64,000 nucleotides of DNA from Microbispora corallina (GTDB lineage Bacteria > Actinomycetota > Actinomycetes > Streptosporangiales > Streptosporangiaceae): NCBI RefSeq assembly GCF_016863035.1, contig NZ_BOOC01000004.1, forward strand, positions 1-64,000. The letters run 5' to 3'. Positions 41,447 to 43,896 of this stretch are shown here, piece after piece (within the stretch, counting starts at the first letter, position 1; each line of letters begins with the position of its first letter). Both the position numbers and the translations under genes were made by a program. The notes under the pieces were generated by a model, which saw only the letters and a list, made by a program, of their open reading frames with translations, was not told where the DNA came from and did no database searches.

Positions 41447-41767
41447 ATGATCCCGAAGGATCCGGAGGAAAGCCCCGAATCTATGCGCCGGCGTGCCCAT
41501 GAGCTGAGGGAATGCGCGCGGCGTGCCCGGTCGATCGCGGAGGGGCTCGGCCCCTGTCTCGACCAGGCCGTGTCGCTGGCGACCGCGAAGGACGCCTGGC
41601 AGGGCTGGTACGCCCACGAGATCACCGGCCGGCTGACCGACCGGCAGCGCGGCCTGCGCGGCATGGCGACCCAGCTCGTGAACGACGCGGGCTCCTGGAT
41701 CGCCGAGGCGGACCGGCTCGAACAGGCGGCGGACAAGGCCGGGAAGGAGGCGAAGGCGGGCCGATGA
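41447..41767 (+). CDS. small WXG100/ESX-like helical protein
   Basis: The 106-residue protein is predicted all-helical: MRRRAHELRECARRARSIAE, then the turn KDAWQGWYAHEI with a W-x-G triplet near residue 51, then GMATQLVNDAGSWIAEADRL. Size, helix-turn-helix shape and WXG triplet fit type VII (ESX) secretion partners. Its stop overlaps the ATG of the protease gene (ATGA), so the two are made together; it may be the protease's co-secreted partner or chaperone. There is no ESX machinery in the window. The family call is inference. Confidence 0.65.
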   Translation: MIPKDPEESPESMRRRAHELRECARRARSIAEGLGPCLDQAVSLATAKDAWQGWYAHEITGRLTDRQRGLRGMATQLVNDAGSWIAEADRLEQAADKAGKEAKAGR

Positions 41768-43245
41768 GCTACGTGGGCTTCGACGTCGACAAGATCCGCG
41801 GGCTGGCGCGGGAGATGCGCAAGGCGGGCGTCACGGCCGGGCCGCTGCACCGCGACCTGGCCAAGGTGCTCGCCGACGCGGAGGCCGCGCTCGGCGGCGT
41901 GGCGCCGACCACGTCCCAGCCCCTCCTCGACGCCATGCGCGGCGGCCCGGCGAAGGGACTGCCCGGCGTGCTGGCCACCTCGCTCCCCGGCGAGGCGGGG
42001 GAGATCGACCGCCGCTGCGACCGGATCTCGCCGCCCAACGGCGGGTTCCCGCCCGGCACGGTCGTCGACCCCATGGTCGTCTTCGACCGGGCCGAGCCCG
42101 ACGAGGGGAAGGTCAACCAGGCCCTCGACCTGATCAAGGGCCTGAACGGCAAGGACTTCGGCACGAACGGCAACCGCGACGACGTCCGCGAGGTGGCCAA
42201 GCGGCTGGAGGAGCTCACCCCCGCCGAGCTCGACCTGCTGCTGTCCAAGCTCGACGACGCCGACCTCAAGCGGTTCGGCGCGCTGATCTCCGACACCGGC
42301 GACCACTGGTACAACCCGTTCGACGCCAACGGCCTCCCGGAGGGGGAGCGGCGCGACCTGCTCAGCCATCTTCTGGAGCGGTCGGGTCCGGGTTCGTGGC
42401 CCAAGCTGGCCGCCGACCTGCCCGGCGTGCAGCCGGGGTTCGACACCACGGACGTGTTCCTGGACGGCGTCAACAGCCAGAGCGGCGTCTCCACGTCGGG
42501 CCTGCACTACGGCGTGCCGAACGTGCCGCTGTTCGCCGACGGCGGCGTCCAGGCGAGCGAGGTGGCGCAGGGCACGCTCGGCGACTGCTGGTACATCGCC
42601 TCCCTCAAGGCCACGGCGGCCGCCGACCCGAAGTTCATCCAGGACGGCATCCGGCAGAACGCCAACGGCACCATCTCCGTACGGGTCTGGGACAAGGACG
42701 GCAACCTGCACTGGGTCACCATGACCCCCGACCTGCCCCTCGACTCCGGCGGGAACATCGCCTTCGCCCGCAGCGTGAGCAACGGCACGACCACCGAGAG
42801 CTGGCCGGCCTACTACGAGAAGGCGTTCGCCCTCCTCTACGGCGACGACGACGGAGGCGCCCCCGACGGCAAGGACGGCGACTCCCGCTACGACCGCAAG
42901 GAGCACGGCGACTACGGCGCCGTCGAGTGGGACTTCACCGACAAGGCCCCGCCGTACGTCACCGGGAACGACGCGGACGGCATCGACCTCGACTACGACG
43001 ACGTCAAGAAGGCGTTCGACTCCGGCCACCCGGTCATCGTGTCGAGCCACTCGAACATGGACGGCGTGCCGGACCACCTGAAGAAGGCGTACGTGACCCG
43101 GCACGTGTTCTACGTGAAGGGCTTCCAGAACGGGAAGATGGTCCTGGGGAACCCGTGGGGACCGGGATCGCCCGACCTGGTGGTCACGCCCGACGAGTTC
43201 AAGCGCATGTTCGACGACCCGCAGAAGCTGACCGTGGGGAAGTGA
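41764..43245 (+). CDS. calpain-type (C2) cysteine protease with ESX-like N-terminal domain
   Basis: The 493-residue protein has three parts. Residues 1-90 form a helical ESX-like domain (VDKIRGLAREMRKAGVTAGP). Residues about 115-215 form a linker domain (LDLIKGLNGKDFG, ALISDTGDHWYNPFDANG). A calpain protease domain follows from about 265. The triad is visible: Cys275 in QGTLGDCWYIASLKA, His447 in TRHVFYVKGF, and Asn463 in LGNPWGPGSPD. No signal peptide. This is the make-up of a type VII-exported effector or toxin, preceded by a WXG protein and followed one base later by two small proteins that could be cognate inhibitors. Substrate unknown. No truncation. Confidence 0.85.
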   Translation: MSYVGFDVDKIRGLAREMRKAGVTAGPLHRDLAKVLADAEAALGGVAPTTSQPLLDAMRGGPAKGLPGVLATSLPGEAGEIDRRCDRISPPNGGFPPGTVVDPMVVFDRAEPDEGKVNQALDLIKGLNGKDFGTNGNRDDVREVAKRLEELTPAELDLLLSKLDDADLKRFGALISDTGDHWYNPFDANGLPEGERRDLLSHLLERSGPGSWPKLAADLPGVQPGFDTTDVFLDGVNSQSGVSTSGLHYGVPNVPLFADGGVQASEVAQGTLGDCWYIASLKATAAADPKFIQDGIRQNANGTISVRVWDKDGNLHWVTMTPDLPLDSGGNIAFARSVSNGTTTESWPAYYEKAFALLYGDDDGGAPDGKDGDSRYDRKEHGDYGAVEWDFTDKAPPYVTGNDADGIDLDYDDVKKAFDSGHPVIVSSHSNMDGVPDHLKKAYVTRHVFYVKGFQNGKMVLGNPWGPGSPDLVVTPDEFKRMFDDPQKLTVGK

Positions 43246-43246
43246 G

Positions 43247-43492
43247 ATGGACAGGTGGCGGCTGCGCCGCGGCATCCCGTACCGGATGGAGCATCAGGGG
43301 GAGGCCCTGCTCGTCGGGATCAACGACCTCACTCCCGACCGGGTGACCTTCACCGTGAACGTCGACGGTGTGCCGCGCGACACCTTCGCCCTCGGGGTGG
43401 GGGAGACGGCGCGGATCGCCGGCCGGCCGTACACGGTCGTCGCGATCGACGCGGACGGCCCGGGATTCGCCGATCTGGAGGCCCGCGCATGA
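43247..43492 (+). CDS. small cytoplasmic protein, paralogue of the next gene's product (DUF6406-like?)
   Basis: The 81-residue protein has no signal peptide. Its sequence (LLVGINDLTPDRVTFTVNVD, then GVGETARIAGRPYTVVAID) aligns by eye with the mature part of the following lipoprotein: both share VG[ED]xxx[IV]AG[RH]x[YF]xVV. ATG 43247 lies one base after the protease stop, and its own stop overlaps the next ATG. Position suggests an immunity or inhibitor protein for the protease in the cytoplasm. I recall such small domains as DUF6406 but am not sure. Confidence 0.6.
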   Translation: MDRWRLRRGIPYRMEHQGEALLVGINDLTPDRVTFTVNVDGVPRDTFALGVGETARIAGRPYTVVAIDADGPGFADLEARA

Positions 43493-43896
43493 GGCCGATC
43501 CCGTCCCGTGCGCCGCTCGCGGCGCCTGCGCGATCCCTTCGCCCGCTCGCGTGGCCGTTCGCCGCGGCCGCCCTCGTCCTGGCGGTGCTCCCCGCGGTCG
43601 CGTCCTGCGCGTCGTCCGGCGGGGGAGGCGCGGACGCCTCCGCCTGCGCGGGAACCGACCGGTCCGGCGCCGTCCACGTGCTCCAGGGCGGCACGTACCC
43701 CCTGGCGGGCGGCGCCCGCGCCGGGATCAATGTGATCGGCGACGACCACGCCGCGACCCTGACGCTGCTCGGCGGCCGCCCCGGCGATCCCGCCACCGTC
43801 GACGTCAAGGTGGGCGACGAGTTCGGCGTCGCCGGGCACCGCTTCCAGGTCGTCCAGGTCTGCTCCGACAAGGTCTCCCTGGTCCCCTCCTCGTGA
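43489..43896 (+). CDS. lipoprotein paralogue of the preceding small protein
   Basis: The 135-residue product has a long Arg/Pro-rich N-region, a hydrophobic core (PFAAAALVLAVLPAVA) and a lipobox-like AVASCASS, so it is probably lipid-anchored outside. The mature part (GINVIGDDHAATLTLLGG, VKVGDEFGVAGHRFQVVQVC) resembles the 81-residue protein before it. Two versions of one domain, one inside and one outside, fit protection against a protease that is made inside and exported; this is inference. It overlaps the previous gene by ATGA and ends the operon. Confidence 0.65.
   Translation: MRPIPSRAPLAAPARSLRPLAWPFAAAALVLAVLPAVASCASSGGGGADASACAGTDRSGAVHVLQGGTYPLAGGARAGINVIGDDHAATLTLLGGRPGDPATVDVKVGDEFGVAGHRFQVVQVCSDKVSLVPSS

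What the first reader, a model, noticed from the sequence alone, without database searches (positions are those of the whole stretch)
41447..43896. Four-gene operon: WXG-type protein, calpain-type protease, and an inside/outside pair of related small proteins
All four genes overlap or lie one base apart. The protease (Cys275-His447-Asn463) has an ESX-like N-terminal domain and follows a 106-residue W-x-G protein, the make-up of a type VII effector. The next two products share one domain; one has no signal, the other a lipobox. That fits an exported protease with paired inhibitors or immunity proteins on both sides of the membrane. I know of calpain-like bacterial proteases but not of this arrangement as a described system.
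Basis: partly seen in the sequence, partly recalled or inferred. Interest (0 to 1): 0.72.

Follow-up and report, generated by a model that had tools for sequence, protein, structure and literature searches.

The report
Exported protease with paired inside-outside guards
Some actinomycetes carry a four-gene set for a probably secreted protease of the calpain kind together with two small related proteins, one inside the cell and one on its surface, that probably keep the protease from harming its maker.

Summary
The operon is real: four + strand genes, 41447-43896, spaced -4, +1 and -4 nt: a W-x-G helical protein, a calpain-family protease (Pfam Peptidase_C2 E=6.6e-10; Cys275-His447-Asn463), an 81-aa protein without signal and a 135-aa lipoprotein. 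In 38 distinct loci a W-x-G gene precedes this protease type; 26 encode both an unexported and an exported partner, 8 only an exported one, 4 only an unexported one. The partners belong to one family (Pfam DUF6406). Of 103 actinomycete calpain loci, 69 have a partner starting within 60 nt downstream, against 0 of 602 other genes. Location follows the protease's route: membrane N-terminus, lipoprotein only (28 of 29, one without); no export signal, unexported only (27 of 34, seven without). Some related calpains are tips of polymorphic toxins. Best reading: a type VII-exported protease toxin with inhibitor (immunity) proteins in both compartments. Binding, inhibition and export are untested. 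Against: DUF6406 is common without calpains, 20 of 20 calpains of another family lack partners, and the rule rests on few independent switches. Compartment-specific immunity to a type VII toxin is published (EsxX), with unrelated families.

The parts
41447..41767 (+). Gene 1: 106-aa helical W-x-G protein, likely type VII co-substrate or chaperone partner of the protease
   Evidence: L20, W51, L63, L77, A88 invariant in 11 sequences including gene 1; profile match (hhalign probability 92.9, E=3.8e-7) to a W-x-G protein in the locus of an EccC/EssC-like ATPase in the same genome; Pfam alone weak
41764..43245 (+). Gene 2: 493-aa protease; residues 1-215 a conserved N-terminal region; residues about 240-487 the calpain-type catalytic domain
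   Evidence: Pfam Peptidase_C2 6.6e-10; calpain chains of the PDB 8.5e-6; CHN triad; N-terminal region searched in 297 genomes, found in 6 calpain genes plus one short weak match that is another kind of protein
43247..43492 (+). Gene 3: 81-aa DUF6406-like protein, no signal, no cysteine; candidate cytosolic inhibitor
   Evidence: AlphaFold model pLDDT 93.7, pTM 0.82, eight strands; leave-out profile E=3.7e-6; relative in G104 over the Pfam cut-off
43489..43896 (+). Gene 4: 135-aa lipoprotein with the same domain and two further cysteines also present in its relatives in L031-L034, L201, L204 and L214; candidate extracytoplasmic inhibitor
   Evidence: lipobox VASC and hydrophobic segment; leave-out profile E=3.0e-5; cysteines; DUF6406 itself only E=0.19

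Best explanation
A type VII (ESX)-exported calpain-family cysteine protease that acts as a toxin or effector, with two DUF6406-like inhibitor (immunity) proteins. Gene 1 pairs with the helical N-terminus of the protease for export (inferred). The protease folds in the cytosol before export, where gene 3 holds it inactive (inferred); after export the surface lipoprotein of gene 4 protects the envelope of the maker and its kin (inferred). Shown by sequence: the gene order, the catalytic residues, the kinship of the two small proteins, their different predicted locations, their linkage to calpains, and that location follows the protease's route over the loci examined. Rough odds by step: small proteins inhibit the protease 0.65; export by type VII 0.75; target is other bacteria rather than a host, predator or own surface 0.45.
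For: Four-gene order in 5 other genomes of the family set and in other families: L214 (f28), L192 and L194 (f21), L201 (f20). Named genomes: 36 of 42 analysed loci have the W-x-G gene; of these 24 have both partners (the exported one with a lipobox pattern in 21), 8 an exported one only, 4 an unexported one only, of which L269 has a lipoprotein upstream. Partner starting within 60 nt downstream: 69 of 103 calpains, 0 of 602 genes that lie more than 100 nt from a calpain in the same loci. Location: membrane N-terminus 28 lipoprotein, 0 unexported, 1 none; no export signal 27 unexported, 0 exported, 7 none; ESX-type 15 of 20 both (11 of this family, 4 of another pair set by hand); all 28 of the first group have a lipobox-like pattern. 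A plasmid calpain not used in building the profile fits (no signal by eye; 86-aa unexported partner, E=1.5e-18). Distances of protease and partner correlate (Mantel r=0.87, n=28; r=0.80, n=25). A second, larger related pair (43.7 and 49.4% identical in L199 and L206, the 2 of 4 loci compared) has the same inside/outside form. Toxin context: L208 has calpain at the C-terminal end (1387-1621 of 1649) behind Gln_amidase toxin stretches (best at 112-224), followed by an 88-aa partner; the L067 protease N-terminus is 61% identical over 339 residues to a Ntox17 toxin near the EccC/EssC-like ATPase in the window's own genome; tandem partner copies in L146 and L055.
Against: No binding or activity result. 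DUF6406 is common without calpains, downstream of secA-like genes or as a lone lipoprotein. 20 of 20 f19 calpains, with a W-x-G-like part in the same chain and all three catalytic residues in 19, have no partner, and DUF6406 was found in 0 of those 20 genomes. L198 and L200 have a different membrane protein instead. In 7 of 36 loci a domain that looks, by eye, like the unexported one is fused to the lipoprotein and no cytosolic copy is seen. Six proteases with a W-x-G motif in their own N-terminus have only the exported partner (L186, L260, L265, L270, L271, L273). Of the membrane type, L050_5 (counted) and a first calpain of L059 (not counted in the 103) have no partner found. The location rule is clustered on the tree: 1-2 independent contrasts. 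The window-type N-terminus was found on no other toxin in 297 genomes, so tip exchange is not shown for this type.
Confidence: 0.58

Rival explanations
1. The small proteins are positive partners: a regulatory subunit or folding helper inside, and a surface anchor or activator outside, of a protease with an ordinary role at the cell surface.
For: Same linkage and co-inheritance data would arise; two-domain lipoproteins; DUF6406 occurs without calpains; f19 calpains do without.
Against: Calpain at the end of a polymorphic toxin with a partner behind it and tandem partner copies look like immunity; unexported calpains with only an unexported partner do not need an anchor (inference).
Confidence: 0.2
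2. A secreted protease aimed at eukaryotic hosts or predators, or used for nutrition, with inhibitors only for self-protection, as with staphopain and staphostatin.
For: Staphostatin precedent for a small beta-barrel inhibitor of a bacterial papain-fold protease; no target evidence either way.
Against: Toxin architecture of relatives. A surface inhibitor is less needed for a protease harmless to bacteria (inference).
Confidence: 0.17
3. The neighbours are unrelated genes that happen to lie together.
For: None found.
Against: Order conserved over families; 69 of 103 against 0 of 602.
Confidence: 0.02

Closest known systems
EsxX with ExiAB and ExiCD, Staphylococcus aureus type VII toxin (PMC12744356; abstract and passages seen)
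   Same: Type VII substrate with one immunity system inside and another at the envelope
   Different: EsxX is a membrane-depolarising toxin; its two immunity systems are distinct families, ExiAB soluble and ExiCD polytopic; here a protease and two members of one family, the outer one a lipoprotein
Cpe1-Cpi1 (PMC12136450; passages seen)
   Same: Papain-like cysteine protease toxin with an adjacent small immunity gene
   Different: Gram-negative, tied to T6SS and CDI; one immunity protein in the passages seen; another protease group (that it is not family C2 is recalled)
Staphopain-staphostatin (review PMC7863939; passages seen)
   Same: Papain-fold protease of a bacterium with a small beta-barrel inhibitor
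   Different: Families C47 and I57; that the genes form an operon and that the inhibitor is cytosolic only is recalled, not from a call
Bacterial calpains, Rawlings 2015 (PMC4631099; abstract and passages seen)
   Same: Same peptidase family; secreted or membrane forms noted; Streptomyces and Frankia homologues mentioned
   Different: In the passages seen no partner genes; 'operon' occurs 0 times in the text

Membership tests
Calpain family C2 (Pfam Peptidase_C2) | Score over the curated cut-off | tested here: met
   39 against 23.8 bits
Calpain family C2 (Pfam Peptidase_C2) | Cys-His-Asn catalytic residues | tested here: met
   C275, H447, N463; all three aligned in 97 of 103
Calpain family C2 (Pfam Peptidase_C2) | Proteolytic activity, calcium dependence | not testable with these tools
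   none
Type VII (ESX/WXG100) substrates | WXG100 match of the partner gene | tested here: inconclusive
   W-x-G conserved; Pfam WXG100 E=0.0084 at best in 3 of 11; profile match to a W-x-G gene in the ATPase locus
Type VII (ESX/WXG100) substrates | Type VII secretion ATPase in the genome | tested here: inconclusive
   EccC-like, E=2e-111, but 374 bits under the cut-off of 509, and the search rings in 9 of 14 control genomes; beside it two FtsK_SpoIIIE stretches in one chain and a WXG100 gene with E=1.1e-10
Type VII (ESX/WXG100) substrates | Export depends on that system | not testable with these tools
   none
DUF6406 (PF19944) | Family profile match | tested here: inconclusive
   34 of 48 proteins of alignment A3 match at E<=0.01, but gene 3 has no hit and gene 4 only E=0.19; relative of gene 3 in G104 over cut-off; a leave-out profile of calpain partners finds both
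Toxin-immunity pair | Conserved adjacency of toxin and small partner | tested here: met
   69 of 103 against 0 of 602
Toxin-immunity pair | Partner neutralises the toxin | not testable with these tools
   none
Staphostatin / chagasin type inhibitors | Same fold | tested here: inconclusive
   small all-beta model; the comparison is not a full search

The most novel reading that the evidence does not exclude
DUF6406-like proteins beside calpains are a dedicated family of inhibitors of bacterial calpains, with location set by how the protease leaves the cell: inside for unexported ones, a surface lipoprotein for membrane-anchored ones, and both for most type VII-exported ones, so that one inhibitor fold guards a protease on both sides of one membrane.
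Probability: 0.45. Interest if true: 0.8.

Novelty: new variant of a known kind. Interest (0 to 1): 0.66.

Why it matters
It would give a function to part of DUF6406 (0 papers in the library hold the name), a role to bacterial calpains, of which Rawlings 2015 says that, if a doubt about one enzyme is right, none has been characterised biochemically, and a simple test case for how a cell protects itself from a folded protease before and after export. The compartment rule makes predictions that can be checked gene by gene.

Tried and rejected

Rows dropped: L065 (frame of 16792 aa), G317 (not fetched) and the first of two calpains in L059 (missed by my gene caller; membrane type, no partner found) are outside the 103; eight partial or odd rows were left out of the protease tree (95 of 103); of 69 rows, 40 were fetched as new loci; of 80 loci, the best 43 were analysed and L246 gave no intact frame. 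Classes ESX and f19, the four larger pairs, L037 (membrane type) and L201's exported partner were set by hand. L259 and L261 were counted as read.

Full report
Observation. The four + strand frames lie at 41447-41767, 41764-43245, 43247-43492 and 43489-43896, each ATG to TGA. The protease matches Peptidase_C2 at E=6.6e-10 and calpain chains of the PDB at 8.5e-6. The upstream neighbour is a sulfotransferase-like gene and the downstream one a transporter-like gene, both on the other strand (names are my reading), so the four genes form a unit of their own.

Relatives. In the window's family 32 of 297 genomes hold a match to the protease at E<=1e-5, the window's own among them; five others are close (49-81% identity), all five with the W-x-G gene before and the two small genes behind. 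PF00648 was found in 39 of 297 genomes of the family, 46 of 345 of the order and 56 of 394 of the class sample. I took 103 protease loci, the window included, and aligned them; Cys, His and Asn are all present in 97 of 103.

The small proteins. The gene right behind the calpain is a small protein of one family in 69 of 103 loci. Pfam names it DUF6406: 18 of 42 at E<=0.1 in a first set, 34 of 48 at E<=0.01 in a second. A profile of 65 such domains without any ESX-type row finds gene 3 (E=3.7e-6) and gene 4 (E=3.0e-5; for 1000 sequences). The model of P0003 has pLDDT 93.7 and pTM 0.82, eight strands. 69 of 103 calpains have a member starting within 60 nt downstream, against 0 of 602 genes more than 100 nt from a calpain in the same loci. 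The full profile was built on these same loci, so the 69 is not independent; the plasmid locus L314, not used for it, gives E=1.5e-18.

Delivery types. (a) 29 proteases have an N-terminal membrane segment, 20 of them with G-x-x-x-x-E-Y/W before it as in Flp pilins (the likeness is recalled; Pfam DUF4244 matched 2 of 27 weakly): 28 have a lipobox-bearing partner only, one none. (b) 34 have no export signal: 27 have an unexported partner only, 7 none. (c) 20 have ESX features: 11 both partners of this family, 4 both partners of another, larger related pair, 3 an exported one only, 2 none of these. (d) 20, all of family f19, carry a W-x-G-like part in the same chain and have no partner; DUF6406 was found in 0 of those 20 genomes. 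The exported partners of L067 and L144 have a membrane segment but no lipobox.

Statistics. The classes form few clades: 5 changes of class on the tree, and only one or two independent contrasts for the location rule, so the neat table must not be read as 55 independent cases. Within classes, distances of proteases and partners correlate: r=0.87 for 28 and r=0.80 for 25 loci, none of 5000 permutations as high.

The window type in named genomes. A scan with nine full-length relatives gave 80 loci, among them Planotetraspora (4), Streptosporangium, Thermoactinospora, Streptomyces, Cellulomonas, Kribbella, Catenulispora, Haloactinopolyspora and Nocardioides. Of 42 analysed, 36 have the W-x-G gene; 24 of these have both partners (21 with a lipobox pattern in the exported one), 8 an exported one only (7 with two domains, the second by eye like the unexported partner), 4 an unexported one only. 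In L269 of these four a lipoprotein of the same look lies upstream of the W-x-G gene.

The pair. In the window the two domains are 21% identical, in L035, L192 and L194 46-49%, and there the six lie together on the tree with a starred fork. So the pair was either made twice or made alike by conversion; in both cases both copies were kept. The exported partners of the window, L031-L034, L201, L204 and L214 have two more cysteines in the domain part; of 40 unexported proteins 35 have no cysteine. This fits a disulfide outside the cell (inference).

Toxin context. 339 residues of the L067 protease N-terminus are 61% identical to a protein of the window's own genome that ends in Ntox17 and lies in a locus with an EccC/EssC-like ATPase and a WXG100 gene. 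In that locus a further W-x-G gene matches the profile of gene 1. L208 has Gln_amidase toxin stretches before the calpain domain. In G159 a pilin-like N-terminus carries a HINT domain and an EndoU match just under its cut-off (24.5 against 25.3 bits). These make calpain look like one of several toxin tips. For the window type itself no exchange of tips was seen in 297 genomes.

What is known. Compartment-specific immunity for a type VII toxin was shown for EsxX, with distinct families inside and in the membrane (PMC12744356; abstract and passages). Protease toxins with immunity proteins are known (PMC12136450; passages). Dual immunity by two unlike proteins is known for a nuclease (PMC13392607; abstract). 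Bacterial calpains have been reviewed without mention of such partners in the passages seen (PMC4631099). The 2012 survey of polymorphic toxins has 'calpain' 0 times in the held part of its text (PMC3482391). DUF6406 is in no paper of the library. So the idea is known; the components and the use of one family on both sides are, as far as these searches go, not described.

Verdict. Real, conserved and well explained as an exported protease with guards in two compartments, but inhibition and export remain inferences. New variant of a known kind.

Noticed in passing
L225 (own genome, contig C27:1-18000), 2341-12187: Type VII-like locus: two W-x-G genes, a 645-aa protein, a 606-aa Ntox17 toxin, a 186-aa neighbour, a 1471-aa FtsK/SpoIIIE ATPase and a WXG100 gene.
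   Followed up: partly
L039:11893-13512 and other genes of L039, L041, L042, L063: Several large proteins begin with a pilin-like segment (such as G-x-x-x-x-E-Y, then a membrane helix, by eye); one has a HINT domain and an EndoU match just under cut-off, five others gave no or only a weak Pfam match. The pilin-like start may be a toxin delivery or anchoring module.
   Followed up: partly
L080-L082, L084-L086, L088-L090, L094-L098: DUF6406 matches downstream of a secA-like gene (gene name is my reading).
   Followed up: no
L069, L071, L073, L074, L076-L079, L083, L087, L093: A DUF6406 protein with a WRVSE motif and no calpain in view, in several loci lipoprotein-like; odd frames around some look like antisense of ribosomal RNA (not checked).
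   Followed up: no
L178-L185, L187-L191, L193, L195-L197, L202, L207, L217: Family f19 calpains with a W-x-G-like part in the same chain, many beside a thiolase-like gene (my reading), no partner, DUF6406 in 0 of 20 genomes.
   Followed up: partly
L198, L200: Calpains followed by a membrane protein of about 175 aa that the partner profile does not find; L198 has a weak WXG100 match, E=0.0013.
   Followed up: no
L036, L037: Near-identical loci; in L036 the membrane segment and catalytic domain are one frame, in L037 two frames.
   Followed up: no
L226 (own genome, contig C32:152000-171000): A second FtsK/SpoIIIE-type ATPase gene and WXG100 gene near Tad-pilus-like genes (Tad naming is my reading).
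   Followed up: no
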